Source: a virus. Taken from it: DNA of 57,541 nt. Location: positions 1 through 57,541 of the IMG/VR virus record IMGVR_UViG_3300025128_000038, one strand, 5' to 3'. The notes beneath the pieces are model-generated. The model ran no database searches and was not told the DNA's origin. It was given only the letters and a program-made list of their open reading frames with translations. The position numbers and the translations under genes are program-made. Each line of letters opens with the position of its first letter. The stretch's first letter is position 1. Positions 18,647 to 53,556 of the stretch are shown here, piece by piece.

Positions 18647-21397
18647 ATGGCATCAACATGGTCAAATCTTGGTTTGAGATTAATGACAACAGGCGAAAAT
18701 TCAAACGCTTGGGGTGATCAAACTAATTACAACTGGAACAGAATGGAAGATGCATCCGATGGTTATGCAACTTTAGCAGTAACTGGTAATCATGCATTAG
18801 ATTTTACAGTAAATCCTACTGGATATTCTGATGAAAATGGGCGTAATAAAGTTATTGTATTTACAGGATCCGCAGGGGGCACTCGTGTTATTACATTTCC
18901 CGATATTGAAAAAACTTACTTTCTTTTAAACGATTCAGATTCTACTCTTACTTTAACATCAGGTACTGGAGCGACAACTGCTTCATTAGCTGCGGGAAAA
19001 GACATGGCTATTTATGTAGATGGTTCTGACGAAGTTCATAATGCATTAGCAAATTTAGCTGCAACAACTGTAACAACATCAGGAGCTGTGACACTTGGAG
19101 CTCAAGGCACGACTGGAATTACCCTTGGTGGTATTCCGTTTTTCTATGGTGACACAGGGTCAATTTATACACATGATGTATCTGGAACAGATAGTACAGC
19201 AACTTACAACTCAGCTTATGGTTTAACGGCTTTAGATGCAATTACAACTGGAGATAACAATACAGTAATTGGTTATGGTGCGGCTGGAGCTTCTACAACA
19301 CTTCAAGGTAATGTAGTTATTGGAACTAATGCTGTTAGTACTGGAACATTTGTTGGTAACAATAATGTAGTTATTGGTAAACTTGCTGGTAATGATTTAA
19401 CATCTGCAGATTCAAATGTAATTATTGGTGAAGATGCTGGAGCAAATCAAACAGACGCAGACAACAATATTTTAATTGGTCAAGCAGCTGGAGAAGCACT
19501 TACGACTGGTGGGGATAATATATTTATAGGAACTGCTGCTGGTGATGGTCACGACGCTGAAACTAATAATATTGGAATAGGTAAAAATGCATTAGGTGGC
19601 GCAATAGATGGCGGAGAATATAACATAGCCATTGGAAATGCTTCTTTAGATGCTTTGACTACTGGTGATAAAAATGTCTGTATTGGTTATGACGCTGGTG
19701 GTGCATTAACAACAGGAAGTGAAAACACGATAATTGGAGAGAATGCTGGTTCTAATGCTGCTATTACTGGCGATGCCAATGTTATTATTGGTAAAATTGC
19801 TGGTTATGCTTTAACTTCAGGACATAGTAATAATATAATAGGTAGACACGCTGGTAGTGCTTTAACAACAGGTACCCATAATACTCTTATAGGACATTCT
19901 GCTGGTGATAACTGGGATGCTGAATCTCACAATTTAGCAATAGGAACATCAGCTTTGTCTGGTTCAGTTAATGGAGGAGAGTATAATATAGCTATTGGTA
20001 ACTATGCTTTAGATGCTTTAACAAGTGCTGATTATTGTGTTGCTGTTGGTTATAATGCTTTATCTGCAGTTAGTTCAGGCGGAAGTAATGTAGGTATTGG
20101 CAGAGATGCTGGCTTATTAATTACAACAGGAATACATAATATAATGATAGGCGAACAAGCGGGTGACGGATACGATACTGAATCATATAATATAGGAATC
20201 GGAAGTGGTGCATTAGGCGGAGGTAGCCTTGCTGGTGGAGAATACAACGTAGCTATTGGTAGTTTTACTTTAGATGCTTTGACTTCTGCTGATAACAATG
20301 TTGCTATTGGACATAACGCTGGAACTGCCACTACTTCAGGTGGCAATAATGTTTTTATAGGTAAAAATGCTGGTACAGCACATACTACTTCTTCTCAAAA
20401 TGTGTTAATAGGTGCAGACGCTGGGGCTAGTATAACAACTGGTGGAGACAATATTATGATTGGTAGAGAAGCTGGGGATGGATATGATACTGAAAGTCAC
20501 AATGTAGGAGTCGGAACTGGTGTATTAGGAGGATCAATAGCTGGTGGAGAATATAATACAGCTTTTGGTACTTATGCTTTAACTGCTTTGACTTCTGGTG
20601 ATAGCAATAATGCACATGGTTATAATTGTGCACGTAGATTGACAACAGGTAATTTTAATAATTTCTATGGTGAGCAAGCAGGTGACCACGTAACAGGAGG
20701 AAACCATAACACTGGAATAGGTTATTCAGCTATGGGTGGAGAGGCTACTTGTACAGGAAGTGAAAACACTTCACTAGGAAACTATTCTGGTTGGGGGATT
20801 ACTACAGGTGCATCAAATACTACACTTGGTTATGATTGTGCTCATAATATAAGCACTGGTAGTAACAACATAATGATTGGTGTTGATGCTGGAGTTACAG
20901 GTAGTCCAGGTGGTAACATAACAACTGGTAGTAACAATATAGGTTTTGGAGATGAAAATATATCTTCTTGTAATATACAAACTGACTGGACAGTAGCTTC
21001 TGACCAAAGAGATAAAACAGATTTTACTGCTTTAGATGTAGGATTAGATTTTGTAAATGACCTTAAACCTTATACTTATAAATGGGATAAACGTGTTAAA
21101 TATGTATCAGATGAAGACAGAGACACTATTGATTTAGATACTATTACTCATGATGGTACACATAAAGAAGATTGGTTAGACATAGGATTTAAAGCACAAG
21201 ACGTAGAAGCTTTAGAAGATGCAGCTGGATATAAAATTGCAGAAAAAACAAATCTTACAACTTCTTTAACAGACGATGGTAAACAATATGGTATTAAATA
21301 TAGTAACTTTGTTCCTATCTTAGTAAAAGCCGTACAAGAGTTGTCGGCTACAGTTACAACTCTACAACAAGAAGTAAATACTCTAAAAGGAGAATAA
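18647..21397 (+). CDS. tail fibre with YadA-like repeats and S74 self-cleaving tip
   Basis: This is a receptor-binding fibre of 916 residues. Residues 1-150 are the probable virion anchor (TWSNLGLRLMTTGENSNAWG). About residues 190-770 consist of many degenerate repeats of roughly 16-25 residues with NNxxIGxxAG and ALTTG cores, like the left-handed trimeric coils of YadA-type heads. The C-terminus is a peptidase S74 intramolecular chaperone: SDQRDK at 785-790 holds the Ser/Lys dyad, followed by YKWDKRVKY, IGFKAQDVEAL and a terminal coiled coil (VQELSATVTTLQQEVNTLKG). The last 130 or so residues should be cut off after trimer folding. Confidence 0.88.
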   Translation: MASTWSNLGLRLMTTGENSNAWGDQTNYNWNRMEDASDGYATLAVTGNHALDFTVNPTGYSDENGRNKVIVFTGSAGGTRVITFPDIEKTYFLLNDSDSTLTLTSGTGATTASLAAGKDMAIYVDGSDEVHNALANLAATTVTTSGAVTLGAQGTTGITLGGIPFFYGDTGSIYTHDVSGTDSTATYNSAYGLTALDAITTGDNNTVIGYGAAGASTTLQGNVVIGTNAVSTGTFVGNNNVVIGKLAGNDLTSADSNVIIGEDAGANQTDADNNILIGQAAGEALTTGGDNIFIGTAAGDGHDAETNNIGIGKNALGGAIDGGEYNIAIGNASLDALTTGDKNVCIGYDAGGALTTGSENTIIGENAGSNAAITGDANVIIGKIAGYALTSGHSNNIIGRHAGSALTTGTHNTLIGHSAGDNWDAESHNLAIGTSALSGSVNGGEYNIAIGNYALDALTSADYCVAVGYNALSAVSSGGSNVGIGRDAGLLITTGIHNIMIGEQAGDGYDTESYNIGIGSGALGGGSLAGGEYNVAIGSFTLDALTSADNNVAIGHNAGTATTSGGNNVFIGKNAGTAHTTSSQNVLIGADAGASITTGGDNIMIGREAGDGYDTESHNVGVGTGVLGGSIAGGEYNTAFGTYALTALTSGDSNNAHGYNCARRLTTGNFNNFYGEQAGDHVTGGNHNTGIGYSAMGGEATCTGSENTSLGNYSGWGITTGASNTTLGYDCAHNISTGSNNIMIGVDAGVTGSPGGNITTGSNNIGFGDENISSCNIQTDWTVASDQRDKTDFTALDVGLDFVNDLKPYTYKWDKRVKYVSDEDRDTIDLDTITHDGTHKEDWLDIGFKAQDVEALEDAAGYKIAEKTNLTTSLTDDGKQYGIKYSNFVPILVKAVQELSATVTTLQQEVNTLKGE

Positions 21398-25960: not shown

Positions 25961-27235
25961 ATGGCAACATTATACGATTATTTAGTATCACAAGCAGGCG
26001 CAGGTCAATATGGTTCTATAGGACAAACACAAACCGCTGAGTCTCCATTACCAGAATATATAAGAGATGCATCAGCTAGAGCAATTGAAGCAGCTAAAGC
26101 AGTTGCTGCTGAACCATACATAGCTTATGGCGGCCCAAGAGTTTCAGGATTAAATGCAGAACAACAACGAGCAATTCAACAACAATATGGTATGGCTGGT
26201 GAAGGTGTTGCAGGAGCTGATATAGGTATTGGAACATTAGGAACATCTAGAGGTTTAGGAGATACAGCAACTGGTTACATTGCAGGAGGAGCAGGCACAG
26301 CAGCGGGGGCACTGGGAACTTTAGGTACATCATTTGATGCTGCCGATCAAGCACGTGCAATGGCTGCGGCTGGTTTCGGATCAACTGCTGGTACTCAAGG
26401 AATGGCAGGAGGAGCTTACGGTTTAGCAGGACTTGGAGCACAAGGAGTTACTGGCGCAGATATTCAAGGATTTATGAATCCTTATACTCAACAAGTTACA
26501 GATGTTGCAGCACGTAAATTTTTAGAGCAAGGTCAAACAGAAAGACAACAGTTAGCAAGTCAAGCAGCAATGGCTGGTGGCTTCGGTGGAAGTAGAGCTG
26601 CTGTTTTACAAGGCATGCAAATGGCTAAAGAACAAGAAGGTATCGGAGATTTATATACTAAAGGATTATCTACTGCTTACGAGTCTGCATTAGCTGCAGC
26701 ACAAGAAGGACGTAAGCGTCAAATAACAGGAGCACAAGCACAAACTCAAGCAGGTCAATTAGCCAATCAAGCAACTCTTGCACAACTACAAGCAGCAGGA
26801 CAAACTACTCAAGCTGGACAATTAGCAAGAGGGGCAACTGGTGAAATGAGACAACTTGGTGCATTACAAAATCAATTAGCTGGACAACAACTTAAAGCTG
26901 CAGGAGAAAGACGTGCTCTTGGAATGGATCAAATTAAAGCAGCAGAAGCTAGACAAAGAATTGGAACAACTGATGTTGCAGGTCAATTAGGCGTGGCAGG
27001 ATTACAACAGGCACTAGATCAAAAATCTATGGATGTAGCTTATGCTGATTTCTTAAGAGAGCAACAATATCCTAAAACTCAATTAGATTGGTTAACAGGA
27101 GTAGTTAAAGGATATCCTGTGATTGCGCCTGGTCAAGCACCAGAACGATATGATGATCCAAGTACATTTGATAAAATAATGGGGGTTGGTATGCAAATTG
27201 GCGACTGGTATGGTCAATCTCAGGATTGGTGGTAA
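25961..27235 (+). CDS. Ala/Gln-rich internal virion protein, 424 aa
   Basis: This protein is unusually rich in Ala, Gln and Gly, with long helices (GQLANQATLAQLQAAGQTTQ) and a core LASQAAMAGGFGGSRAAVLQ that I associate with internal virion proteins of marine podoviruses. There is no signal peptide or enzyme motif. It is probably an ejected core protein lining the path of the DNA. It shares an operon with 24295 and 27239. Confidence 0.6.
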   Translation: MATLYDYLVSQAGAGQYGSIGQTQTAESPLPEYIRDASARAIEAAKAVAAEPYIAYGGPRVSGLNAEQQRAIQQQYGMAGEGVAGADIGIGTLGTSRGLGDTATGYIAGGAGTAAGALGTLGTSFDAADQARAMAAAGFGSTAGTQGMAGGAYGLAGLGAQGVTGADIQGFMNPYTQQVTDVAARKFLEQGQTERQQLASQAAMAGGFGGSRAAVLQGMQMAKEQEGIGDLYTKGLSTAYESALAAAQEGRKRQITGAQAQTQAGQLANQATLAQLQAAGQTTQAGQLARGATGEMRQLGALQNQLAGQQLKAAGERRALGMDQIKAAEARQRIGTTDVAGQLGVAGLQQALDQKSMDVAYADFLREQQYPKTQLDWLTGVVKGYPVIAPGQAPERYDDPSTFDKIMGVGMQIGDWYGQSQDWW

Positions 27236-28350: not shown

Positions 28351-31300
28351 ATGGCAGACAAGAAGCCGATGAAACGGCCAACAGATATTCGTACAATGTT
28401 AGGAGCAATATATAATGCTCGTGACCTTTCCAACTTAGATAAATTCATAAAAGATGTAGCACAAGTAGAAAGCTCTGGCGGTAAAAATACTGTCAGTAAG
28501 GAAAGTTCTGCACGTGGTATATATCAATTCTTAACTGAAGGAGAAGGTAACGCATTTCAAACAGGATTAAATCGTACCGCAGCTATGTATGGAAAAATGG
28601 GCTCTATTCCTGAGTGGGTAATAAAAGCCAAAGAACATAACGATCCAAATAAATTATCAAAAAAGCAACAAGAAGATGTAATGTTAGCTAACTTGTATCA
28701 ACAAGTTGGAACAGATGAATACTTTACAGGAGTTTTAGAAGGAGATTCTAAAGCTGCTTCCCAATTGTATGAACAATTTCATCATACTACAAAAGGTATT
28801 ACAGAAGATGAAAGAATAGCCGACATATTTGGTATTGTAAAAAGACAACAAGGTGGCCCAGTAGAAGCGGGGCAACCTTATTTAGTAGGAGAACAAGGGC
28901 CAGAACTTATTGTACCTAATCAAAGTGGCACGGTACTTCCAAATCAAGATCCAAAAGTTCAACAAAGAATTGAGGCTATAGATGCAAGCGTGCAAGCCCC
29001 ACTTCCCATACCTAAAGGTTATTATTCTGGAGCAGATGCAGTATACATTGGCCCAAGAGAAGAAGAATCAATTAAACCAACAAGAAAAGTAAAATATATA
29101 ACCTTTGATAATCCAGATGTAAGAATTCCTGTACCAGCAGAATTTGATGACGCTCAAACAAGAGAATACTTGAAGAGTGGCGAAGCTGAAAACTACATGA
29201 TGAGCCAAGGTTATCTTTGGAGATATGGATTAGAGCCTACTCAATTAGATGACCCAACAAATTTAGATGATTGGGATGTAACGGCTGGTATGAAAACTGG
29301 TTACGATAATCTTAAAGCTATAGGTGCGGGAGCATTATATACTTTTTGGGATGTATTTGACAACGAAGAAAAAAAGAAAGACCTTGCAAAATTAATTGAT
29401 CAATACAATCAAGACGCTTTTGCTCACTTAGTTAAACCTGGTGAAGACGGCGGTTTAAAAATACGTGAAGGTGAATCAGTACCAGCAGATTTACGTATTA
29501 CTCAATTCAGTGATTTATTTAATGAAGCTAAATTAGGCCGCTTTATAGATTGGGCGCAATTTAATTTTGCGTCTGGTGCAACCACTATGGTTCCAATGAT
29601 CTTAGCCTCTTTAGCAGGTGCTGCTGCTGGTGTTGCTGCCGCTCCCTTTACAGGAGGAACTAGTCTAGCTGCAACAGGTGCTTTAATTGCAGGTACAGGT
29701 GCAGCATATGTAATGGGTGTTGGTGAAATAACAGGGGCACAACTAGATCGTTACGGTGATTCTAATGCCGCACTATCTTTAGGAGGTGCTGTTCCTTATG
29801 CTGTAGCTGAAAGATATTTAGGTGCAGGTAATATAATTGGTCGTACACTTCTTGAAAAATATGGGAAAGAAAGTATTAAAAAAGTAATTGCAGGCACCAC
29901 TATTAAAAAAACATTTGAAACAAAATTAAATAACAGTTTAATAAAAGAAGTTGCTAAAGGTTTTGGTTCAAACTTTGTTGGTGAGGGAGCAACGGAGGCA
30001 ATTCAAGAAGTTATATCTAGTACTGCGGCCGAATTGGGAGCAGGCGCAAGTCTTGGTGATTTATATAAATCAAAAGATTTTTGGGTACAAATAGGAAATG
30101 CCGCTGCAGCTGGGGCTGTTGCAGGTGGTGGTATAGGTATGGCTATTGGTGGCCCAATGAATTACATAGGAAAAATAGGATTAAAAAATATCGATGCCAC
30201 TATAACTACTGCTGAAAGAATTAATCGTAGTAATGTTGAAGCTGTAAAATCAACTGGTGCTGCCATAGATGATATAGTAACCATAACTGGAGAGCTTGGG
30301 GATAAAGAATATAAATTATTAGGTACACAAATATTATCAGACGGTGAAGAACATTTCATACTTCAAAGTTTAGATGGCACAGGTAATGTATCTACACCAA
30401 TTAAGAATGCTAGCAAACTTAGAAAGAGTAGATTAACTGAAGCAGACAAAGCAACACTCGAAGATGGTGCAACATACATGCCAGAAGATACCACACCTAT
30501 TCCTAAAGCAAAAGAAGCAAACCAAGCTGTTAGAGATTTAAAAGCAAGGGGCATAATAAATTCAGAACAAACTGTAGAAGATCTAATAGGAATAGCTCCT
30601 GACACTGCTAGTTTCATTGAAGAAGAATGGGAAGAATACCAAGCAGAATTAAAAAATAGAGAAGAGTTAATACTGGCAGGAGAAATACCAGCCCCATTAC
30701 CTGCTAAATATAAAAAATATTTTGGACTTGAAGGCGAAGCTTTTGCTAAAGCTGCAGCTGAACAATATCAAAGAGAAAAGAAACAAGGTATTGTTGATTT
30801 CACAAATACAACATTAGCCAACGAAAATCAATTAACTGATGAAGAAAAATTAGCTTTACAAAAACTTGGGTATTACAAAGGCCCAAGAGGAATGGAATTT
30901 ATAAACAGATTATTAAGTGATACATATGTAAAAGATAAAGCTAAAGAAACAAATGGATTAAGAAAGATAAGAGAGATCATAGCTAATCAAACAGCGTATG
31001 TTCCTCAATCATTAGAAACTAATAGAGTGGTATCAAGAACCCAAGTGCCCCCTTTACTTCCTAATGAGCTTACAGGTTATCAACCGACACCAGAACAAGA
31101 AGCTGAAGGTGAAGCTCTTACACAAGCAAAGAAATTATACGATTGGAATATAGCTAAAGCAGATGAACAGATAGTTCAATTACAAAGTGAGTTAGCAGAT
31201 TTATCGGCATTGCCTCAGAGTCCTTTAAGGAATCAAGAGATAATACAAAAGACTAATGAGATTGCTAATTTAGAAACACGAAAACATGAGATTGCTAAAA

Positions 31301-34300
31301 CTTTATCTGATCCTGTAAGTCGAATAATTGCTATAAGAGATATTGTTAATAACATGGACAACTCTGGTTTCAAAGTTAACATGATTCAATATTATAGACA
31401 AGCCTTAAAAGAAGCTCGTAAAGCAAAAGATGAAGTGTTAATTCAATATTATCAAAATGAAATAAAAAATTACGTACCAACCAAGCAACATGTCTTTACC
31501 TTTAATGGAAAATTAGTATACACATTAACTTCAAAAGCTAAACAACAATTAGAAGCTGACGTAAGAGCTCTTGAAGAAGTGATGAAAGAATTGTTACCTG
31601 GAGGATTTACTATAGCAGGTTATAGAACACTAACTGAGAAACAAAGATTACGTTATAGACAAGTAAATAGAACTGTACAACAAAGAAGAAACGCAATTAA
31701 AAATATAGATAATAAGCGTGATGAACTTAATGCTTTATTAGAAAGTTTTGACATAGAACCTATTGTCAAATGGGATTCATTTTCTAACAAACCCAGAATA
31801 CCTGAATTAAATAAAATAAAGAAAAAGCTGTTTGGTTATGAAGAAATTAAAAGAGAAAAAGTAATTGAACAATATTGGAGTTTGAAAGAAAACCCAGATT
31901 CAAACGATCGTCCTGCTTTAACTGAAGAAACAATCAACAAATTACCTATGTTACTTGAAAGTTTAAACGCTGAACTTAGTCGTATGGGCTTAGATAATTT
32001 AAGTGTACGTATAATAAGTGATCTCGTAAATGCAAAGGGGGCACAGGTAAATGGTAGATTCTTAGGCGGTATGAATCTAATCGAAGTTGCTCTTAACGCT
32101 GTACAAAATGCAAGCGGCAATAAATTAAATCCATCTGATTCTCGTATGTTTACATTACATCATGAATCTATGCACTATGTATTTAGAAATTTACTAACTG
32201 AAAGAGAACAAAAAGTTTTAATGGATGCAGCACGTAAGGCGTATCTAAAAAAATACAATATTAAAAAAAGATATGAGGGGTATGGTTTAAGTGAACAACA
32301 ATTATTAGAAGAAGCTATCTCAGATGCCTTTGCTGATTATATGGCTACAACAGCTAATGGTTCTGTTTATAGTCCGAAAGGAATGATTGCTAGAATATTT
32401 GATAGAATTAGAAACTATATAATTGCATTAGGTAATGTATTAACAGGGGCGCAACTGAGACAAACAGCTCAAATATTTAACAATATAGATATGGGTGTAA
32501 TGAAAGCTCGTCAAGAGATTATGGACAAAATTGACATTAGTCAAACTGAAATGCTTAATTTGGCTTCCATAGCTGGAATATCTGAATCAGAAGCATATAA
32601 TTTCTTTTACCAAAGAGGACGTAGTGTGGTTACAGTTGGTGGAGAAAAGGTTGGTTCATCAATATCCAATGCAGATATGTATCGCTCTTGGGTAATGCAG
32701 GTTGTACCTAAAATAATATACATTCAAGAAAATCATATTTCAGAAAAGGTAACAAGAAGTGTCCTAGAAAACATTAGTAACTTAATTCAAAATTTAACAA
32801 CTGAATCTGGTGTACCTAATTTAGAGCAAGCTAATTTTTATTTACAAAGATTAAATGGTTTAAGTGAAAGAGACTTGAACACAATGGCTGCTTTTTTACA
32901 AAGCAATATAGGCGCTAGACTAAACCTAAAACTTATAGGAGATTTAAAAGCATCAATGCCATCTAGGGTGACAGAACATGCGGTTAGATTATTGGAACTG
33001 TTGGATAATCCTGCATTTTTTGCAGCAAGATTAAATACTTTAAATAAAAATATGCCAACAGAAACAGACATAAGAATAGCAGGCTCTCCTCATATTGTAT
33101 TCCATGGTACAGATCCAAAGATAGCTAAGGATATAACAAAGAAAGGATTTAAAATAGCACCTGGAATTGGAGATGATTCACTGGGAGTGCATTTTGGTAC
33201 CATGTCTCAAGCTTCTATTATATCTATGAAAAAATATGGCAATGTTGAAATGCTACCTGCTATATTACACATTGTAGATCCTGTTAGGATGAAAGATATG
33301 GGAGCTAATTGGGGTGCTAACAGAGCATTAAATGCATTGACCATGGAAATAAAAGACACTAATCTTGAGTATGGTCTTGATGTAGATATGGGAAGACCAA
33401 CGACACCAGGACTGATAATAGATAAAATATTTACACAAGAAGAAGCTCGTATTATAAGAGACAAATTCCAAGACATAGTGGCAAAAGCATTTCGTAAATA
33501 TACACCGACAGAAGTTCAGAAGCTAGAAAGAAATCAAGAAGTACGTTATGAACAACAAAAAATATTAATAGATGCGATTAAAGATAAAGGATATGACGGA
33601 ATAGTTTATCGTAACGTATATGAAGTTACTGAAGAACCTGGCATTGAAACTAAAGATTCTTTTATTGCATTTGATTCAAATCAAATAATGCTTGTAGATA
33701 ATAATTCTAATTTAGATATGTCTGATATTAGTTATAGTGCGGCTACAACTGTAGAACCAGACCCATCAGACGATAGTTTAAGTGAGCCTGTAGAGGCAAC
33801 TAGACATGAACTTAGACTAGATGAAAAAGGCATTGAGGAAAGTGGTAAAGCGGCAGATAAGGTAACCGATTTAAAAGATGGAGAAACAATTAATTTAAAA
33901 GATTTAGGCAGAGCAGAAAAAATGATGATGCACTTTAGAGGAATTGCATTACGTTATCCTTTCTTAAGTAAACTTTGGAGACTTGTTACTGGCATGGAAC
34001 AAAAAGCCAGAGGAATACAAATGCAATTTGCTGCACAAATGAGACGTTATTATGATATCATTAACAGAGTTGAAGGAGCCAAAGAAGCATTAGCTAAAGC
34101 TCATATTATATCACAACAAGAAGGGGCACAGGCTAAATATACAAAAGATGAACAAGGTAGGATTATATTTGTATCTCCAAAAAGTTTAATTTCAGGTGGT
34201 AATAATCCTATAACAATTAATCAAGGTGAAGTTGTTGTATTGGAAGGTGCTGTAGCGGATGTTTACATGGAAGCACAAGCTGCTATAGAGACAGTGTTAA

Positions 34301-37014
34301 AAGAACATATGAAAGGTACGATAGCTAGTTCCTTTATTCCACAATTAAAAAGTGCTATTCGTATATTGACTGAATATAATCCAGAAATATTAGTCAGTGC
34401 AGGAATTGATCCCGCAACTGTTACTGATAATGATATTGAGAATTTTGAATTTAATGAAGTGAATGCTATTGTACAAGGTTTAATAGCAACTCCTCAAATT
34501 ATAAGAAATAAAGCAATGGATGCATCTTTAATGAACAGCGTTAATCTTAGTAATTTAGCATTAAGTGTTGGAGAAATTACAAATTCTATTGGTGTCTTAT
34601 TAGGTGGAACGGAAACTAATCTTAACACATTATTGAAACAAACAGAACAATTTGAACAATTCAAAAAGTTTGATTATGTTCCATTACAAAGATATGGAAC
34701 ACATGCAATAACTGTAACAGATAAAGAAGGTAAAGTACTTAGGTATGAACATATAGAAAAAACATTAGTAGAGGAGAAAGCTAGAGGATTTACTAATGCT
34801 CGTAAGTTTGCAGATGTAAGAAGTCGTTTAATAAGAGAGTACCCACCTTCTGAAGGTTATACGGTATCTGAAGTAGAGGAAATAAACAATGAAGTTAGGA
34901 ACAGATTACCTAAAGATTTATCTATGTTGGACAATATGGCTCAACGTTTGTCTGATAGAAATGCAGAAGGATATAGGCAAGCTAGAGAAGAATTAGATTC
35001 AATAATTGGAAAAGGAAATTTAATAGGATTTGATCAGTTCTTAAGAGGAAGAAAAGAGATTGGTGGTGTGCCAGGATTTGATGGAGATATACTAAGAAGC
35101 ATATCACAGTTTGGTATGGTAGGTTCTGAATATGCGGCAAGAAATAGATTTTTAAAAGATATAAAAAATAGCTACACAGAAGCAATTAATTATGCGGATA
35201 AAAATAATTTAGTACGTTTGAAAGATACTATTACAAAGATGAAAGAATATGGTGTAGACAATTCTCATAATCATGAATGGGCTACAATGAGAAGAATGGG
35301 TTTCTGGTGGTTCTTAGGTGGTAATATATCTTCTGGTATCTTACAAACAATGAGTATCGTACAATTCACTGGGCCAATGTTAGCAGAGTTCAGCAACAGT
35401 GCAGCCGCTGCTACAGAATTATCAAGAGCTTTTGCGGATGTATCTAGATTAGGTTCTTGGAGCGATAACGAATACAATGATGTTTGGTTAAAATTAGATA
35501 GAAATAGTTTAATGAAAGTGTTTAAAGATAAACAATTAGTTGAAGCTATTATAGAAGATGTAGGAAATGGTATCATTAAACAAGGACAAGCATTGTTTGA
35601 ATCTGGTCAAGCTCCTGGGTATCAAATAATACCAACTGATAAGACAACCCAACAAGCTAGAGCAAGATTAAAGATAATGGAACAACAAATAATGGGCGGA
35701 ACTTTCAACACTATGGAAACATTCTCTCGTTTAGTTGCTTATGTTGCCGCATACAGGACAGTATCTAACCCGACTTCAGGAACAATTTCTAATCCTGCAA
35801 AAAATATGCAAAGAGCAGATGATTGGTATTCTGGTTCTAATCTTATTTGGGGTGAGATGAAAAAACAAAGAGGTGGAATAGCCACTGCTCAAGATCTTGC
35901 CCGTATATTAATTGATGATACTTTCGGAGATTACTCTAAAGCCAACCGTCCTAGAATGATGAGAAATTTTGGATCAGTGGTATTTTTATTTCAAACATAC
36001 ATCAGTCAAATGTTTGGTTTACTTAGAAGACTATTAGTAGGACAAGGCAACGCACAACAACGGGCAATGGGAAGAAGAATATTCGCAAGAATAATACTTC
36101 AATTATTTTTGACTGCTGGATTATTTGGATTACCAGGATTTGACGATTTAGATTTCTTATATAGAATGATTATGAAAATGGGAGGAGTCAATGATGATCT
36201 ACGTACACAAATGAGAGAAGTGTTAACAGACGTTGGAGTTGGTGCAAAAATGACAGAGGCTATAATGAATGGGGGCATAGAATCTTTTGGTAATATAAGT
36301 GTACAAAGAAGATTATCTTTAGGAGAAGTACCTGGGTCAGCACAGATGCGAGCAATGTTATCCATGTTGGGCGTACCAACAGGAGCTAAAGCTGAACAGT
36401 TTTTAGGTGCACCTGGTGCAATTATGTTTGGTATTCCTAGTGAATTAAACAGAATGATACAACAACAAGGGGGAAAAGCATTTAGTGATATGGATTTCTA
36501 TATGGCTACCATGCCTTCGTTTGTTAAAAATCTATATCGTGCGGCATATAAATATCCAGCAGAAGGATATGTTGAAACACGAAATGGGACATTGTTAACT
36601 ACAGATGTCAAAGCACACGAGTTAATGTTGCAGGGAATAGGGTTTACCCCAACTGAAATATCTAAAGCTAGGGAAATACTATGGTATGAAAAACAAATAG
36701 ATACTAAGTATCAGGGAAGAACAAAAAGATTTAATGCTCAAATTAAAAAAGCTTATAGAGATTTATATATGGCAATCAATTTAATAAATGATCCAGCACT
36801 TGGTATAGAAGCTCAACAAAGATTGCAAGAAGCAATGAGAGAAATAATAGAATTTAATAATACAGTTGACTCACCATATACTTATGTCCCAGATCTTAAT
36901 AGATTAAGAGATGAAGGTATACAACAAGCCAACTCTGAATATAGAGCTTTTAAATCTGATAAAGCTACTTACTTAAAAAAGCAAGACATGTATAAACAAA
37001 TGGGTGTTAATTAG
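28351..37014 (+). CDS. giant polyvalent virion protein with lysozyme-like, zincin and ART-like domains, 2,887 aa
   Basis: This is probably ejected into the cell with the DNA. Seen in order: (1) residues about 30-155, a lytic-transglycosylase-like domain with VAQVESSGG (Glu40) and SSARGIYQF (52-60), for opening peptidoglycan; (2) a GGPVEAGQPYLVGEQGPE segment common in tape-measure and virion proteins; (3) Ala/Gly-rich hydrophobic segments at about 411-458; (4) a zinc-peptidase motif HESMH at 1271-1275 with EE at 1320-1321; (5) an ADP-ribosyltransferase-like domain with VFHGTD (about 1583-1588), GYDGIVYRN (about 1747) and DSFIAFDSNQI (about 1769-1779); (6) a long helical C-terminus with an apparent membrane segment near 2577-2595. 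Such multi-domain ejected proteins are known as polyvalent proteins; domain limits are by eye. Confidence 0.8.
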   Translation: MADKKPMKRPTDIRTMLGAIYNARDLSNLDKFIKDVAQVESSGGKNTVSKESSARGIYQFLTEGEGNAFQTGLNRTAAMYGKMGSIPEWVIKAKEHNDPNKLSKKQQEDVMLANLYQQVGTDEYFTGVLEGDSKAASQLYEQFHHTTKGITEDERIADIFGIVKRQQGGPVEAGQPYLVGEQGPELIVPNQSGTVLPNQDPKVQQRIEAIDASVQAPLPIPKGYYSGADAVYIGPREEESIKPTRKVKYITFDNPDVRIPVPAEFDDAQTREYLKSGEAENYMMSQGYLWRYGLEPTQLDDPTNLDDWDVTAGMKTGYDNLKAIGAGALYTFWDVFDNEEKKKDLAKLIDQYNQDAFAHLVKPGEDGGLKIREGESVPADLRITQFSDLFNEAKLGRFIDWAQFNFASGATTMVPMILASLAGAAAGVAAAPFTGGTSLAATGALIAGTGAAYVMGVGEITGAQLDRYGDSNAALSLGGAVPYAVAERYLGAGNIIGRTLLEKYGKESIKKVIAGTTIKKTFETKLNNSLIKEVAKGFGSNFVGEGATEAIQEVISSTAAELGAGASLGDLYKSKDFWVQIGNAAAAGAVAGGGIGMAIGGPMNYIGKIGLKNIDATITTAERINRSNVEAVKSTGAAIDDIVTITGELGDKEYKLLGTQILSDGEEHFILQSLDGTGNVSTPIKNASKLRKSRLTEADKATLEDGATYMPEDTTPIPKAKEANQAVRDLKARGIINSEQTVEDLIGIAPDTASFIEEEWEEYQAELKNREELILAGEIPAPLPAKYKKYFGLEGEAFAKAAAEQYQREKKQGIVDFTNTTLANENQLTDEEKLALQKLGYYKGPRGMEFINRLLSDTYVKDKAKETNGLRKIREIIANQTAYVPQSLETNRVVSRTQVPPLLPNELTGYQPTPEQEAEGEALTQAKKLYDWNIAKADEQIVQLQSELADLSALPQSPLRNQEIIQKTNEIANLETRKHEIAKTLSDPVSRIIAIRDIVNNMDNSGFKVNMIQYYRQALKEARKAKDEVLIQYYQNEIKNYVPTKQHVFTFNGKLVYTLTSKAKQQLEADVRALEEVMKELLPGGFTIAGYRTLTEKQRLRYRQVNRTVQQRRNAIKNIDNKRDELNALLESFDIEPIVKWDSFSNKPRIPELNKIKKKLFGYEEIKREKVIEQYWSLKENPDSNDRPALTEETINKLPMLLESLNAELSRMGLDNLSVRIISDLVNAKGAQVNGRFLGGMNLIEVALNAVQNASGNKLNPSDSRMFTLHHESMHYVFRNLLTEREQKVLMDAARKAYLKKYNIKKRYEGYGLSEQQLLEEAISDAFADYMATTANGSVYSPKGMIARIFDRIRNYIIALGNVLTGAQLRQTAQIFNNIDMGVMKARQEIMDKIDISQTEMLNLASIAGISESEAYNFFYQRGRSVVTVGGEKVGSSISNADMYRSWVMQVVPKIIYIQENHISEKVTRSVLENISNLIQNLTTESGVPNLEQANFYLQRLNGLSERDLNTMAAFLQSNIGARLNLKLIGDLKASMPSRVTEHAVRLLELLDNPAFFAARLNTLNKNMPTETDIRIAGSPHIVFHGTDPKIAKDITKKGFKIAPGIGDDSLGVHFGTMSQASIISMKKYGNVEMLPAILHIVDPVRMKDMGANWGANRALNALTMEIKDTNLEYGLDVDMGRPTTPGLIIDKIFTQEEARIIRDKFQDIVAKAFRKYTPTEVQKLERNQEVRYEQQKILIDAIKDKGYDGIVYRNVYEVTEEPGIETKDSFIAFDSNQIMLVDNNSNLDMSDISYSAATTVEPDPSDDSLSEPVEATRHELRLDEKGIEESGKAADKVTDLKDGETINLKDLGRAEKMMMHFRGIALRYPFLSKLWRLVTGMEQKARGIQMQFAAQMRRYYDIINRVEGAKEALAKAHIISQQEGAQAKYTKDEQGRIIFVSPKSLISGGNNPITINQGEVVVLEGAVADVYMEAQAAIETVLKEHMKGTIASSFIPQLKSAIRILTEYNPEILVSAGIDPATVTDNDIENFEFNEVNAIVQGLIATPQIIRNKAMDASLMNSVNLSNLALSVGEITNSIGVLLGGTETNLNTLLKQTEQFEQFKKFDYVPLQRYGTHAITVTDKEGKVLRYEHIEKTLVEEKARGFTNARKFADVRSRLIREYPPSEGYTVSEVEEINNEVRNRLPKDLSMLDNMAQRLSDRNAEGYRQAREELDSIIGKGNLIGFDQFLRGRKEIGGVPGFDGDILRSISQFGMVGSEYAARNRFLKDIKNSYTEAINYADKNNLVRLKDTITKMKEYGVDNSHNHEWATMRRMGFWWFLGGNISSGILQTMSIVQFTGPMLAEFSNSAAAATELSRAFADVSRLGSWSDNEYNDVWLKLDRNSLMKVFKDKQLVEAIIEDVGNGIIKQGQALFESGQAPGYQIIPTDKTTQQARARLKIMEQQIMGGTFNTMETFSRLVAYVAAYRTVSNPTSGTISNPAKNMQRADDWYSGSNLIWGEMKKQRGGIATAQDLARILIDDTFGDYSKANRPRMMRNFGSVVFLFQTYISQMFGLLRRLLVGQGNAQQRAMGRRIFARIILQLFLTAGLFGLPGFDDLDFLYRMIMKMGGVNDDLRTQMREVLTDVGVGAKMTEAIMNGGIESFGNISVQRRLSLGEVPGSAQMRAMLSMLGVPTGAKAEQFLGAPGAIMFGIPSELNRMIQQQGGKAFSDMDFYMATMPSFVKNLYRAAYKYPAEGYVETRNGTLLTTDVKAHELMLQGIGFTPTEISKAREILWYEKQIDTKYQGRTKRFNAQIKKAYRDLYMAINLINDPALGIEAQQRLQEAMREIIEFNNTVDSPYTYVPDLNRLRDEGIQQANSEYRAFKSDKATYLKKQDMYKQMGVN

Positions 37015-42632: not shown

Positions 42633-43879
42633 GGAAAAACCACATTCCCTTCTAGTTTTATGTAACCAGAATCTTCCATAGCCTTGATGGTTTGTTCTAA
42701 CTCACCAGGATTTGGAATCTTTCTCAGCAATTCTCGTTTAAATAATTTCAAAAGCATATGACTTCTTCCATTATTAAATAGTGTACCATGCAACCACGTT
42801 ACCATGTCATGTGCAATACGACCTGTGCGACCCATACCAAAACCTTCTAAAGCTTTAGGCATTTGTTCTTCAGCCGCAAACATTAATTCTTTTGTAAATT
42901 CCCAATCTTCTAACATTATCTTACGGGTGCCCCTCCTTGAAGCAGAGACAGCAATAGCAACTTTAATAAAGTGAGACACTCTACGTTGCACATATTCAGA
43001 TAAATGATTATCAGTAGGCTCTGGTGGTATGCCAGCTTTTATATCTTCATCTACAATTTCAAAACAATCTTCATCAAAAGTCATTGGCCCATACATCTTA
43101 GATATATCAGCTAAGTCTTCTCTTAAATTATCTATAGTATTTCCACTAACTTTTTTTTGAATTAATGATTGAGGTATCCTTTCTCCGTCATAATAAATAG
43201 GAAGCATACGAGATAATAATCCTTGAGATCTTGCATCTTCTGGTAAATTATCTACAAATTGTTCTGGTGTAGCACAAGCTAACCAATTAAGACATGGGCC
43301 TTTTATAATATATTCCCCAGATGTTTTAGTCTTGTGACTATATTCTTCTTTAGAATCCCACATATCTGTCATAAACATTTGAAGATATCTCTCATGCCTA
43401 CCCATAAACGTACCAAATTCTGATGTAACTAATGTCATTGATGAATCATAAAATTCATCCAACGCAGGTGTTGATAATCTTAAATCTAATCTAGTAATCT
43501 TAGTCATATCTACTGCTAATTTTTCTGGAGTAATTCTATCTTGTATCACATACAGTGGATAATTACGTAAGCCATACTGATCTAATCCAGAATTAAAATT
43601 TTGATCATCTTCAGTAGTGCCCACAGGTGTGGTTAATTTACTAAATATTTTTGTGAATGGTAGTATTAAACTTACTGATTTGTTTCGTCCTGGAGGGGCA
43701 ATTAATACTACAAATAAGTTGGATCTAATATCATAGTTAGCCATTGGATACCACACACGTCTACCCATAGCCCCAGCTACTGCACTTAATGCGCTCCATT
43801 GTGCAAATGGTTTTGGTATTGGGCTATCTGCTACTGCATCTACTGATGCCTTTATAAAATCTGTATAGTTTCTACTCAT
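42614..43879 (-). CDS. DUF3987-like P-loop ATPase/helicase, 421 aa
   Basis: Walker A APPGRNKSV lies at about 61-69 (K68), after a helical start (PKPFAQWSALSAVAGAMGRR) and before a Walker B region with LVTSEFGTFMGRHERYLQMF. The segment LNWLACATPEQFVDNLPEDA, followed by SQGLLSRMLPIYYD, fits the DUF3987/phage replicative helicase group, which unwinds DNA at the fork. The C-terminus looks like a winged helix (NPGELEQTIKAMEDSGYIKL). No primase domain is seen. Overlaps the polymerase gene by 8 bases. Confidence 0.75.
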   Translation of the reverse strand: MSRNYTDFIKASVDAVADSPIPKPFAQWSALSAVAGAMGRRVWYPMANYDIRSNLFVVLIAPPGRNKSVSLILPFTKIFSKLTTPVGTTEDDQNFNSGLDQYGLRNYPLYVIQDRITPEKLAVDMTKITRLDLRLSTPALDEFYDSSMTLVTSEFGTFMGRHERYLQMFMTDMWDSKEEYSHKTKTSGEYIIKGPCLNWLACATPEQFVDNLPEDARSQGLLSRMLPIYYDGERIPQSLIQKKVSGNTIDNLREDLADISKMYGPMTFDEDCFEIVDEDIKAGIPPEPTDNHLSEYVQRRVSHFIKVAIAVSASRRGTRKIMLEDWEFTKELMFAAEEQMPKALEGFGMGRTGRIAHDMVTWLHGTLFNNGRSHMLLKLFKRELLRKIPNPGELEQTIKAMEDSGYIKLEGNVVFPCRKDV

Positions 43880-45419
43880 GTGGTTTCCATTTCTTCATGT
43901 TCTTCCAATCGAGACCTGTCTCACAATCAGAAGGAATAATCATTTCTTTTTCATTTACTTGTATAGGATTTTTCATACAAGCTAATATCTTAGGGATAAT
44001 TTCTTTTTCTTTTCCAATAGGAAACTGACCCAATATCGCATCATGTACTTGTCCTAATATTTCTACGCCTTCATTATTTAATTCATTCCATACACGATAC
44101 AATCCTAAGTTTAATAAATCTCCAATAGTTGATTGAGGAATATATGCAATTGCTTTACGTAATGTTGTTGCATCATCTAGTCTTCCCCAAAATTGTCTAC
44201 GTCTTCCTAGAGGAGTTGTTAAAGTACCTTCCAATTGTAATTGCTTGGCAGTATTATCATGCCACTTTCTAATGCCAGGAAATGCTCCTTGTATTTTGAC
44301 TAAGGAAGATGCACCAGTCCCTATAATCGTGCCCCCATCAATTAGTTCTTGGAAACCACCTTCCTTGTCTTGTTTGTGCCACCTCTCCAATGATGACAAC
44401 GCAACTACTCCACCATAGTAAAGTAATTGAAACCTCGTTGCATGTGAAATCTTAATCTTTAAATGTCTACCTAAAGATGTAGCAGATAAACCATAATTAG
44501 TTCCATGTCCTGCTCGTTTACACATATCTCTATAACTAAAATGTCCTATGTAAGGACGATCAGCTAATTCTCTATTTTGTGCTAAGTCAGAAGACCAACC
44601 CATATTGGGCCACACCATTTTAACTACTTGAGTATGTAAGTCTTCTCCTTCACACGCATTTACATATCCTTCATCACCTGCTACATATGCAGTAACTCTA
44701 GATTCTGCTTGTTCTAAGTCAGCATAAAATAAAATGTTACCTTCATCGGGTACAAATATTTCACGCATATCCTTTGTAATATTTTGTAAGTTAGTTCCTG
44801 TACTCCAAGGACTTTCTGAACTTGCCCATCTGCCTGTCTCAGTACCAGCTACTTTAAATGAAGTACGAAGTCTACCATCTTCATCTCTTTTACAATTAAG
44901 AATATTTAATTGTTTATCTATATCTCTCAAAGCTAAAATAGAATTACAAAAAGGACGAGCACGTGGGTATTCTTTTCTTAAATGTTCTAATGCTTCTTTA
45001 TCTGTAGATACTTTTTGTTTACCTTTAACATAAGAAATAACTGGAGGAAGCCCCAACCATTCATATAAAAAACTTTTTAATTGCGTAGGACTATTGTGGT
45101 TGAGATCCTTTTCCCATACAGCTTCAGCAAAAAGATTTAACATTCTCTCCACTAATACTCTGTTCTTGACAAGGGGGGCTCGGATTTCTCCAACCTTCTT
45201 CTCATCAACTTTAAGTCCACGCAACATCATATGCATTGCAGGTTTTAAACTCTGCAATTCAAACTCATATGTCTTTCTAGTTGTTTGGTCTAACTCATTG
45301 GATAGCTTACCCCATATCTCATGAGTAAGCGCACAGTCTAATCCACAATAAACCCATAAGGTTTGTTCTTTAGACAGTTCCTTCTGTGCTATCTCCGTGT
45401 TTCTTATTACTCTCATCAT
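43872..45419 (-). CDS. family A DNA polymerase, polymerase domain with exo motif III only
   Basis: This is the replicative polymerase core. Motif A: LFYADLEQAESRVTAYVAGD (D234). Motif B: RDMCKRAGHGTNYGLSATSL. Motif C: GQVHDAIL (D460). The first 30 residues hold VYCGLDCALT, which is the third motif (YxxxD) of the 3'-5' proofreading domain. Motifs I and II are missing here but present in the gene at 45965-47062. The start is fixed by AGGAGAGGG directly before ATGATG. The polymerase is therefore split within its exonuclease domain. Confidence 0.9.
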   Translation of the reverse strand: MMRVIRNTEIAQKELSKEQTLWVYCGLDCALTHEIWGKLSNELDQTTRKTYEFELQSLKPAMHMMLRGLKVDEKKVGEIRAPLVKNRVLVERMLNLFAEAVWEKDLNHNSPTQLKSFLYEWLGLPPVISYVKGKQKVSTDKEALEHLRKEYPRARPFCNSILALRDIDKQLNILNCKRDEDGRLRTSFKVAGTETGRWASSESPWSTGTNLQNITKDMREIFVPDEGNILFYADLEQAESRVTAYVAGDEGYVNACEGEDLHTQVVKMVWPNMGWSSDLAQNRELADRPYIGHFSYRDMCKRAGHGTNYGLSATSLGRHLKIKISHATRFQLLYYGGVVALSSLERWHKQDKEGGFQELIDGGTIIGTGASSLVKIQGAFPGIRKWHDNTAKQLQLEGTLTTPLGRRRQFWGRLDDATTLRKAIAYIPQSTIGDLLNLGLYRVWNELNNEGVEILGQVHDAILGQFPIGKEKEIIPKILACMKNPIQVNEKEMIIPSDCETGLDWKNMKKWKPHE

Positions 45420-45964: not shown

Positions 45965-47062
45965 TTATTCCTCTGCTTTCGTACTCTTGGAAAAACTTGT
46001 TAGATTTTTCCATGCCCCCTCGTTAGTATAAATAGAACCTAAGTAACCCAAACTTTTTTCCATCTCTGGTTGGAGAGAATGTTGTGCATGCATTGTATCA
46101 TGCACAGTTCCTTTGACTTCTATTTTATATTTATGACGCAACCACGATATGTCATACGTTTGATTCTGTGCTACTTTCGTAACATTAGGGTTGCTTAGTG
46201 TTCGTTTAATTCTATCCCATACTAGTAATTCATTAGAATAATCCCAATAGTCTTTACTATCTTCTGTTTTAAATGGAACTACCATTGCTCTTTTTTTATT
46301 AGGCGCAAATCCTATACAAGTTATTTCACCAAATGCAGTTTCAATATCAAATGATAAAGGATTGTCTGCGTTGTTAAGTAGTTCACATTCAGTTAAGAAT
46401 TCATCTACTTCTTGTAGTGTTGGTTCAATTAATATTTCTCTTTCGGTATGTTCTATTTCAATATTATCTTTAGCACTAACTGCCTTCTTTAAATCTGCCG
46501 CTACGGTTGGCCTAAACGAATAGTTTTTTATTATAGATAGAGGACTGTAAGTAGGCATAATTTTATAAGGTCTTGTTGCCCACTCTGAATCTGCTTCAAG
46601 GAATGAACCTCTGTATGACCCGACTTTATCTAAACCATATAAAGACCATAGAGATATATTACCCATGGCTATAATAATTGTTGGATTATATTTATTTATT
46701 TCATCTTTTAATCTTTTTATATCTTGTTCATACTCTTCTTTTAAATATCCATATTGGGTGGGCACAAACTGTGACCTCCACTCTGTTTCTTTTTTTAATT
46801 TTTTGTATTCACTTCTTTTGTGAAAGAAATTCTGTGGGTTTTCTTGTGCAGGTTTTAATTGAATGGCATGAGTGAGCATAACAGTCTGTGCATTTATACC
46901 TGCGAATTTGCACATAGGATTCAGTACTTGCTGTATGCCTCCTGTATTTATTTTGTTAAGTCTAGATTCGGTAGTCGTAGGATATTCTAAAACTATGCAA
47001 ACAGAATCCCCAGAATCTGGAACCTGAGACTCAACCCGCTTATGTACTGCGTACTCACTCAT
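45965..47062 (-). CDS. UDG-like domain fused to N-terminal part of PolA 3'-5' exonuclease, 365 aa
   Basis: Residues about 15-195 resemble the uracil-DNA-glycosylase fold (VCIVLEYPTTTESR, NPTIIIAMGNISLWSLYGLD, MPTYSPLSII). The typical catalytic motifs are altered: the end motif has YSP where active enzymes have HP. Residues 236-365 are the start of a PolA proofreading domain: exo I FDIET (D239, E241) and exo II AQNQTYDISWL (D304). Exo III is on the separate polymerase gene. A UDG domain in front of PolA is known in SPO1-like phages; here the fusion is broken into two proteins that likely reassemble. Confidence 0.8.
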   Translation of the reverse strand: MSEYAVHKRVESQVPDSGDSVCIVLEYPTTTESRLNKINTGGIQQVLNPMCKFAGINAQTVMLTHAIQLKPAQENPQNFFHKRSEYKKLKKETEWRSQFVPTQYGYLKEEYEQDIKRLKDEINKYNPTIIIAMGNISLWSLYGLDKVGSYRGSFLEADSEWATRPYKIMPTYSPLSIIKNYSFRPTVAADLKKAVSAKDNIEIEHTEREILIEPTLQEVDEFLTECELLNNADNPLSFDIETAFGEITCIGFAPNKKRAMVVPFKTEDSKDYWDYSNELLVWDRIKRTLSNPNVTKVAQNQTYDISWLRHKYKIEVKGTVHDTMHAQHSLQPEMEKSLGYLGSIYTNEGAWKNLTSFSKSTKAEE

Positions 47063-48324: not shown

Positions 48325-48774
48325 TTATAGTATCCTCCTACTTAAATATCTTTGCATGGTGTAAGGATCACTTATCTCATAAGGATCATAATCTGTTGGA
48401 ACATTATCTGCTTTACCTTCTTCTTCAAACATCTTTTCAACTTGTCCGTCTTGAAGTACGGCAGAATATCTCCATGATCTTTTACCAAATCCTTTGTTAC
48501 TTTTATCTACTAACATATTTAACTTGTTAGTTAATTCACCATTGCCATCTGGTAATGTTTTAATTTTTTCAATCTTTAAATTATTTGCCCATGCATCCAT
48601 AACAAACTTATCGTTAACAGAAATACAATAGATATCATCTACGTATTGTAACAATTCATCTGCCATTACTTCGTACTCTGGTAAATGTTTAGATGAACAA
48701 GTTGGAGTAAAAGCACCAGGCAATCCAAAGATTACCACTCGTTTATCTTTAAATAATAAATCAAAATTTCCCAT
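48325..48774 (-). CDS. peroxiredoxin, Prx5 type
   Basis: Reduces hydrogen peroxide and organic peroxides using a peroxidatic cysteine. Seen: VVIFGLPGAFTPTCSSKHLP with Cys26, the Prx5 signature, and DDIYCISVND with a second Cys (50) before the KFVMDAWA helix. The length (149) is complete. Starts from its own promoter (48795-48823). Likely protects host and nucleotide reduction from oxidative stress during infection. Confidence 0.88.
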   Translation of the reverse strand: MGNFDLLFKDKRVVIFGLPGAFTPTCSSKHLPEYEVMADELLQYVDDIYCISVNDKFVMDAWANNLKIEKIKTLPDGNGELTNKLNMLVDKSNKGFGKRSWRYSAVLQDGQVEKMFEEEGKADNVPTDYDPYEISDPYTMQRYLSRRIL

Positions 48775-53400: not shown

Positions 53401-53556
53401 CTATTTTGCTGTGTAAGATGCCGTAAATCCTACGGTTAAAACTACTAGCCATATAATAGCTAGAGGGTTTGGCAATGACATCACGGCTGTCACTATCGTA
53501 TATAAAAAGAATCCTACAATGCCAAGTCCGTAGAATACTTTACCACATTCTTCCAT
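53401..53556 (-). CDS. small membrane protein, 51 aa
   Basis: MEECGKVFYGLGIVGFFLYT then two hydrophobic helices (IVTAVMSLPNPLAIIWLVVL). It overlaps the GGCT-like gene by 17 bases. Likely a two-span membrane protein of unknown role. Confidence 0.55.
   Translation of the reverse strand: MEECGKVFYGLGIVGFFLYTIVTAVMSLPNPLAIIWLVVLTVGFTASYTAK

What the first reader, a model, noticed from the sequence alone, without database searches (positions are those of the whole stretch)
28351..37014. Giant ejected protein combining cell-wall, protease and ADP-ribosylation-like domains
One 2,887-residue virion gene has a transglycosylase-like start, a zinc-peptidase motif HESMH and an ART-like domain. If ejected, it would carry host-targeting enzymes into the cell, as proposed for polyvalent proteins.
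Basis: partly seen in the sequence, partly recalled or inferred. Interest (0 to 1): 0.7.

Follow-up and report, generated by a model that had tools for sequence, protein, structure and literature searches.

The report
Modular phage entry protein with enzymes
A marine virus of bacteria carries one giant protein with a cell-wall cutter, a metal-dependent protease and an ADP-ribosylating-type domain joined on a conserved frame; it belongs to a known class of proteins thought to be fired into the cell with the viral DNA, and its near-identical relatives have swapped the wall cutter and the domain after the protease like plug-in parts.

Summary
ORF 28351-37014 (+) encodes 2,887 residues and closes the late operon of a podovirus. 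All three called domains are supported by independent lines. (1) Residues 11-164 have a lysozyme-superfamily (GH23-like) fold. (2) Residues 1190-1392 are a zincin: HExxH in 43/43 family members, lethal-factor metalloprotease as best structural match. (3) Residues 1578-1787 are an ART-PolyVal-type domain with the PARP/diphtheria/Tpt1 fold. The C-terminus is a PLxRFG (tail-700) domain. This is a 'polyvalent protein' in the sense of Iyer 2017, so the class is known.

Relatives add the organisation: a conserved frame with two exchangeable positions. Genome pairs about 87-96% identical at DNA level differ by a clean replacement of the N-terminal wall hydrolase (GH23-like, GH24, pesticin-type, or an endolysin-like fourth), ending just before a tape-measure-like motif. 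The slot between zincin and C-terminal core holds an ART, a methyltransferase, an ART interrupted by a methyltransferase, unassigned sequence, or almost nothing.

The ART has His-His plus invariant Asn-x-x-Glu instead of His-Tyr-Asp, so its chemistry is open. Ejection, autocleavage and enzyme activity are inferred, not shown.

The parts
28351..37014 (+). Whole giant gene, 2,887 aa; last gene of the rightward late operon
28390..28830 (+). N-terminal peptidoglycan-hydrolase domain, residues 14-160, lysozyme superfamily (GH23-like); candidate catalytic Glu40
   Evidence: AF2 pLDDT mostly 70-92 over 52-142; VIA Z 6.0-6.7 to GH19/GH23 chitinases and phiKZ gp144; E40 invariant in 11/11; 45% identity to HTVC203P gp47 C-terminus
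28828..28950 (+). Junction motif, residues 160-200 (GGPVEAGQPYLVGEQGPELIVP), like the C-terminal region of siphovirus tape-measure proteins; right edge of the N-terminal swaps
   Evidence: PHROG tape-measure families E about 1e-6; swap pairs resume identity here
29083..30210 (+). Core 1, residues 245-620, Gly/Ala-rich with TM-like stretches 410-435 and 439-457; remote similarity to the N-terminal part of N4-type virion RNA polymerase
31918..32526 (+). Zincin metallopeptidase domain, residues 1190-1392
   Evidence: AF2 topology helix-three strands-HExxH helix-Glu helix; VIA Z 7.8 to lethal-factor metalloprotease domain
32161..32175 (+). HESMH zinc motif, residues 1271-1275
32308..32313 (+). Glu1320-Glu1321, candidate third zinc ligand; Glu1321 is the one kept where a relative has a single Glu
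32527..33072 (+). Helical linker, residues 1393-1574, first part of the variable slot
   Evidence: AF2 secondary structure; absent in L022/L023/L065
33082..33711 (+). ART-PolyVal-type domain, residues 1578-1787, cargo in the variable slot
33103..33105 (+). His1585, ART strand-1 histidine
   Evidence: 24/26 sequences
33190..33192 (+). His1614, in place of the usual strand-2 tyrosine
   Evidence: 26/26 sequences
33613..33624 (+). Asn1755-x-x-Glu1758, invariant pair, candidate catalytic acid
   Evidence: 26/26 sequences
33898..34620 (+). Core 2, residues 1850-2090, present in all full-length family members found
34681..34698 (+). PLQRYG, the PLxRFG-type motif, residues 2111-2116
34888..36750 (+). 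Core 3 / tail-700 PLxRFG domain, residues 2180-2800
   Evidence: NCBIfam NF032893 E 3.4e-58, 197.7 bits against a cut-off of 100
25961..27235 (+). Upstream gene, weak match to a DNA-ejection-protein family; possible partner ejection protein
   Evidence: phrog_4287 E 9e-4

Best explanation
A giant ejection protein of a marine podovirus, of the polyvalent type. Proposed working: copies sit inside the capsid and leave with or ahead of the DNA. The N-terminal lysozyme-like domain opens the peptidoglycan. The Gly/Ala-rich hydrophobic core 1 helps cross or line the inner membrane. The conserved zincin cuts the chain, at assembly or after entry, and so frees whatever lies in the next slot. The ART-fold cargo then uses NAD+ on a host molecule early in infection. 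Core 2/core 3 (PLxRFG) are the fixed frame. Wall hydrolase and cargo are exchangeable cassettes, exchanged by recombination between otherwise near-identical phages. Shown here by computation: domains, folds, conservation, modular exchange, purifying selection. Inferred: virion location, ejection, cleavage, all enzyme activities.
For: Late-operon position after terminase, portal, capsid and tail genes. Folds of the three domains. PLxRFG domain above cut-off. Zincin HExxH in 43/43 family members and in 81/81 of a wider set. N-terminal swaps at constant backbone: SLT-like to pesticin-type (L131/L136), to GH24 (L133/L135), to an endolysin-like domain (L140/L142), in genome pairs about 87-96% identical at DNA level. 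Slot contents over 30 clusters: ART 15, ART+MTase 1, MTase 1, occupied but unassigned 3, nearly empty 10. ART dN/dS about 0.27 for L131/L133, against about 0.07 for zincin and 0.11 for core 3: under selection but freer. Precedents: T7 gp16 has an N-terminal transglycosylase and is ejected (PMC8954989); the N4 virion RNAP and the P1 Dar proteins are ejected (PMC5512222; PMC12810830); an ART-like domain is seen in a protein of the cyanophage A4 pre-ejectosome, 9k3a_B.
Against: No proteomics or infection data. VIA Z values are all below 8, and Foldseek against the PDB gave nothing significant. P0001 alone stays below the Pfam cut-offs for SLT and ART-PolyVal. The ART lacks the strand-2 tyrosine. 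The core-1 link to N4 RNAP is short and Ala/Gly-rich (hhalign E 0.0028, probability 11%). The A4 protein has no detectable sequence similarity.
Confidence: 0.75

Rival explanations
1. The enzymes are entry machinery only. The wall hydrolase and zincin act in the envelope or in assembly, and the ART fold is a structural or binding module without catalysis.
For: Strand-2 Tyr replaced by His in 26/26 and Asp1769 not conserved; one relative's slot (L150) holds an ART-like sequence that has lost both histidines; an ART-like domain occurs in a structural core protein of the A4 pre-ejectosome.
Against: His1614, Asn1755 and Glu1758 are invariant in 26 diverse sequences, His1585 in 24, with dN/dS well below 1. 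The domain is dispensable in about a third of clusters, unlike a structural part. It also exists as a free-standing protein, in phage pT24.
Confidence: 0.2
2. The zincin is a host-directed protease effector rather than a processing enzyme.
For: Best structural match is the lethal-factor metalloprotease, an effector; Iyer 2017 lists this as one option.
Against: It is kept in all family members found, including those with a nearly empty cargo slot, and is among the slowest-evolving parts. P1 DdrB shows processing before packaging and carries an MPTase domain.
Confidence: 0.3
3. The protein is a tape-measure or tail-tip protein, not an internal ejection protein.
For: The junction motif matches siphovirus tape-measure families.
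Against: The genome has a podovirus-type portal and no long-tail genes were recognised. The motif covers only about 40 residues, and the core matches PLxRFG and virion-RNAP families instead.
Confidence: 0.07

Closest known systems
Polyvalent proteins of phages (Iyer et al. 2017, PMC5512222)
   Same: Several unrelated enzyme domains (lysozyme, zincin, ART) in one late-gene giant; that paper already reports zincin fused to lysozyme and to ART
   Different: The paper describes a network of fusions. Here orthologous chains show two fixed positions with documented recent exchange, on a PLxRFG frame that a text search of the paper did not find named
NCBIfam NF032893 tail-700, PLxRFG domain proteins (Pseudomonas F116/H66/8P relatives)
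   Same: C-terminal frame, E 3.4e-58
   Different: Only about 22% identity to the cultured relatives by tblastn; motif reads PLQRYG
T7 gp16 ejection protein
   Same: N-terminal peptidoglycan hydrolase followed by membrane and cytoplasmic parts; ejected (PMC8954989)
   Different: No sequence similarity reported by any search here; gp16 homologs listed there are 609-1337 residues, with no zincin or ART mentioned
N4 virion RNA polymerase
   Same: Giant ejected protein with a zincin; possible short homology in core 1
   Different: No polymerase module was found in P0001
Tenacibaculum phage pT24 BPT24_156
   Same: Same ART domain type, also with His at strand 2 and the Asn-x-x-Glu pair
   Different: A 205-aa single-domain protein beside a SprT-like gene, not part of a giant
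Cyanophage A4 pre-ejectosome protein, 9k3a_B (A-4L ORF27)
   Same: ART-like fold at residues 1419-1603 in a solved capsid-internal protein
   Different: No sequence similarity; its motif reads HGT...GTYF, i.e. the Tyr form

Membership tests
Polyvalent protein (Iyer 2017) | Two or more catalytic domains of disparate kind in one chain | tested here: met
   lysozyme-like, zincin and ART folds
Polyvalent protein (Iyer 2017) | Encoded in a phage late/virion gene neighbourhood | tested here: met
Polyvalent protein (Iyer 2017) | Injected with the DNA | not testable with these tools
   analogy only
ART-PolyVal (PF18760) | Pfam gathering score | tested here: inconclusive
   P0001 20.7 bits against 31.2; homologous domains L021 62.4, L099 59.0, L100 43.8 and pT24 73.6 bits pass
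ART-PolyVal (PF18760) | ART fold | tested here: met
   VIA Z 7.9 to tankyrase 2, 7.7 to diphtheria toxin, 7.5 to Tpt1; BFVD hits annotated PolyVal ART
ART-PolyVal active site H-Y-D as described in 2017 | Strand-1 histidine | tested here: met
   His1585, 24/26
ART-PolyVal active site H-Y-D as described in 2017 | Strand-2 tyrosine | tested here: not met
   His1614, 26/26; pT24, which passes the Pfam cut-off, also has His
ART-PolyVal active site H-Y-D as described in 2017 | Strand-5 aspartate | tested here: inconclusive
   Asp1769 present but Glu, Tyr, Asn or Met in relatives; Ser1770 and Glu1758 are the conserved ones
Zincin-like MPTase of polyvalent proteins | HExxH in a helix after a three-stranded sheet, Glu in the next helix | tested here: met
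Zincin-like MPTase of polyvalent proteins | Zinc binding and proteolysis | not testable with these tools
   needs bench work
Transglycosylase SLT (PF01464) | Pfam gathering score | tested here: not met
   13.5 bits against 21.3; therefore named lysozyme-superfamily, GH23-like, not SLT
Lysozyme superfamily (GH23-like) | Fold and catalytic Glu | tested here: met
   18 best VIA rows all lysozyme-like, Z 3.1-6.7; Glu40 in 11/11. Moderate Z, supported by same-position swaps
PLxRFG tail-700 (NF032893) | Score above curated cut-off | tested here: met
   197.7 bits against 100
N4-type virion RNA polymerase | RNA polymerase module | tested here: inconclusive
   Family scans list no polymerase module; phrog_2206 matches only core 1, in its positions 233-416

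The most novel reading that the evidence does not exclude
A general ejection chassis with two plug positions. Recombination in the region encoding a short tape-measure-like junction motif exchanges the wall-cutting head, and a slot behind a processing protease exchanges the intracellular payload (ART, methyltransferase, others), so near-identical marine phages retool entry and payload independently. The ART payload is a His-His/Asn-x-x-Glu class whose chemistry differs from classical H-Y-E enzymes.
Probability: 0.4. Interest if true: 0.65.

Novelty: new member of a known kind. Interest (0 to 1): 0.45.

Why it matters
Polyvalent proteins are well catalogued but hardly tested. This family offers natural experiments: near-identical backbones differing only in the wall hydrolase, and orthologues with and without the ART. 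They allow direct tests of which part sets entry range, whether the zincin frees the payload, and what the phage ART modifies. The His-His/Asn-x-x-Glu pattern marks a clade of phage ARTs whose reaction is unknown.

Tried and rejected
Single-sequence search for the ART in viral contigs found no relative. Alignments mixing ART-only rows with two-domain rows misplaced strand 1 and were dropped; A7 replaced them. PDB sequence hits to TGA transcription factors and a DARPin are chance coil or repeat matches; phmmer of the whole chain found nothing. Last virion genes of HTVC023P, HTVC027P, DSL-LC04, CRP-902 and 023Pt_psg01 are shorter (676-1386 aa) and share at most the hydrophobic stretch. I suspected a ParB-like domain in the L164 slot (SHEGRHR), but Pfam, PHROGs and NCBIfam gave no support. 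Pfam did not name the fourth N-terminal type in L142, but PHROGs links it to endolysin and tail-injection transglycosylase families. Core 1 against N4 RNAP: kept only as a moderate lead, since hhalign E 0.0028 beats reversed and shuffled controls (best 0.044) but probability is 11%. One might read the ART as fast-evolving in L140/L142 (61% identity against 92-93% elsewhere), but its dS is also high, as in the zincin, so mosaic import is as likely. The cyanophage A4 paper itself is not in the library.

Full report
WHAT IS THERE. The window is a 57.5-kb virus record, 35% G+C. On the plus strand runs a late operon with terminase, portal, major head protein, tail and spike genes. Its last gene, 28351-37014, encodes 2,887 residues. 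Portal relatives at 37-38% identity are pelagiphages HTVC023P and HTVC027P, phage DSL-LC04 and Roseobacter phages CRP-901/902. Their last virion genes are shorter and not clearly homologous to this one.

DOMAINS BY SEQUENCE. Whole-protein scans gave NCBIfam tail-700/PLxRFG at E 3.4e-58, well above its cut-off. ART-PolyVal scored E 7.6e-4 and SLT E 0.054, both below cut-off. PHROGs matched residues 159-212 to tape-measure families. The weak calls firm up through relatives. The N-terminus is 45% identical to the C-terminal end of HTVC203P gp47, which lies next to genes annotated as internal virion proteins. The zincin region matches giants of Ruegeria phage 45A6, which also carries LPD38, helicase, methyltransferase and GNAT domains, and of crAss-like phage cr108_1. 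The ART region matches a free-standing 205-aa protein of phage pT24. The domains from L021, L099, L100 and pT24 pass the Pfam ART-PolyVal cut-off.

FOLDS. Residues 1-240 were modelled at mean pLDDT 66.6, with 52-142 mostly 70-92. Foldseek gave nothing significant. In the VIA second look, the best 18 rows are all lysozyme-superfamily: GH19 and GH23 chitinases, phiKZ gp144 lytic transglycosylase, Slt, Rpf, goose lysozyme, T4 lysozyme. Z is 6.7 at most, so I rely on consistency rather than height. Residues 1190-1800 were modelled at mean pLDDT 72.9, pTM 0.45, with both domain cores mostly 80-97. All 50 VIA rows fall on two places: 1190-1361 on the lethal-factor metalloprotease (Z up to 7.8), and 1578-1787 on PARPs, tankyrases, diphtheria toxin, Tpt1 and one capsid-internal protein of cyanophage A4 (Z up to 7.9). 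The zincin topology (helix, three strands, HExxH helix, Glu helix) is the one Iyer et al. give for polyvalent MPTases. Viral predicted structures returned annotated PolyVal ARTs.

ACTIVE SITES. HExxH is present in 43/43 family zincins and in 81/81 of a wider set. Glu1321 is the Glu kept where the pair is reduced to one. Glu40 is invariant in 11 N-terminal homologs. In 26 diverse ARTs, His1614, Pro1644, Gly1747, Asp1749, Tyr1753, Asn1755 and Glu1758 are invariant, His1585 in 24 and Ser1770 in 25. Asp1769 is not conserved. The 2017 description is His-Tyr-Asp, so this is a His variant. By my own recollection of the PARP1 motif NEYIVYD, Ser1770 would sit at the place of its catalytic Glu, which leaves Glu1758 as the best candidate acid; this is inference. 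His-His ARTs are otherwise typical of the RNA-repair/small-molecule H-H-h clade (PMC9503650), and L014's domain also scores weakly to Tpt1/KptA (E 0.0058). That is a hint, not a classification.

EXCHANGE OF THE FIRST PLUG. In 8 clusters the gene starts with about 160-190 residues of wall hydrolase followed by the junction motif GGPVxAGxPYLVGExGPE. The hydrolase is of four kinds: GH23-like (P0001, L131, L133, L140), GH24 phage lysozyme (L130 = L014, E 9.7e-14; L135, E 1.3e-12), pesticin-type lysozyme (L136, E 1.2e-50), and an endolysin-like domain (L142, PHROG E 1.7e-18). Pairs with different heads are otherwise close: L133/L135 95.7% over 15.3 kb, L131/L136 about 90%, L140/L142 about 84-87% over most of their length; identity stops at the gene start and resumes just before the junction motif. 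The backbone tolerates any hydrolase, which is strong evidence that the N-terminus of P0001 has that role. Domain swapping among ejection proteins is known in general (PMC8954989).

EXCHANGE OF THE SECOND PLUG. A scan with the C-terminal core gave 56 loci. In 45 records forming 30 clusters (98% identity in core 3), the stretch between zincin and core 2 holds an ART (15 clusters), an ART interrupted by a methyltransferase-like domain (1, L144 = L018), a methyltransferase-like domain (1, L185 = L027), 365-444 residues without confident assignment (3, one with an ART-like sequence that lost its histidines), or only 65-97 residues (10). Core 1, zincin, core 2 and core 3 are constant wherever the record is complete. 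For L131/L133, dN/dS is 0.07 for zincin, 0.11 for core 3 and 0.27 for ART: the ART is kept by selection but less tightly, as expected of a payload facing variable hosts.

MECHANISM. The order hydrolase, hydrophobic region, protease, payload, frame fits a protein that leaves the capsid, opens the wall, passes the membrane and frees a payload. The hydrolase-first order is that of T7 gp16. Core 1 may share a short element with the N-terminal part of N4 virion RNA polymerase: 10 of 23 members match phrog_2206, best E 1.5e-6, and hhalign E 0.0028 exceeds reversed and shuffled controls, but the segment is short and Ala/Gly-rich. Cyanophage A4 shows an ART-like fold inside a solved pre-ejectosome, though without sequence similarity. 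None of this proves ejection or activity for P0001.

NOVELTY. As a kind it is known: Iyer et al. report zincin fused to lysozyme and ART in late-gene giants. New here are this member, the two-position organisation seen in orthologues, the recent head swaps, the methyltransferase alternative, and the conserved His-His/Asn-x-x-Glu signature. I rate it a new member of a known kind, interest 0.45.

Noticed in passing
28828-28950: A tape-measure-type motif (GGPVEAGQPYLVGEQGPELIVP) sits in a podovirus ejection-type protein and marks the edge of hydrolase swaps; the same motif is widespread in siphovirus tape-measure proteins, where its role is unclear to me.
   Followed up: partly
L018 6520-7932: A methyltransferase-like domain (Methyltransf_23, E 1.4e-5) is inserted inside the ART domain of a relative; L027 carries the same domain alone in that slot.
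   Followed up: partly
L150 4359-5729: ART-like sequence in the slot that has lost both histidines: a degenerate or non-catalytic ART.
   Followed up: partly
10389-10802 and 11040-11375: Phage-encoded small heat-shock protein (HSP20, E 9e-18) next to a GroES-type co-chaperonin (E 6e-16), both among the capsid genes.
   Followed up: partly
48325-48774 (-): Phage-encoded peroxiredoxin (Redoxin, E 1e-21) beside the replication genes.
   Followed up: partly
45965-47062 (-) and 43872-45419 (-): Family-A DNA polymerase appears split: a uracil-DNA-glycosylase-like domain fused to the 3'-5' exonuclease in one gene (Pfam), the polymerase part in another (read by eye).
   Followed up: partly
53540-53956 (-), 56073-57020 (-), 57046-57465 (-): Gamma-glutamyl cyclotransferase (E 4e-17), weak class-II glutamine amidotransferase (E 0.0012) and, by eye only, an amidoligase-like fragment near the contig end: possibly a phage amidoligase cluster.
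   Followed up: partly
18647-21397: Tail spike of short repeats ending in a Peptidase_S74 intramolecular chaperone (E 1e-9).
   Followed up: partly
L186 20116-25269 (-): Cyanophage A-4L ORF27 (PDB 9k3a chain B) has an ART-like fold at 1419-1603 that Pfam does not detect.
   Followed up: partly
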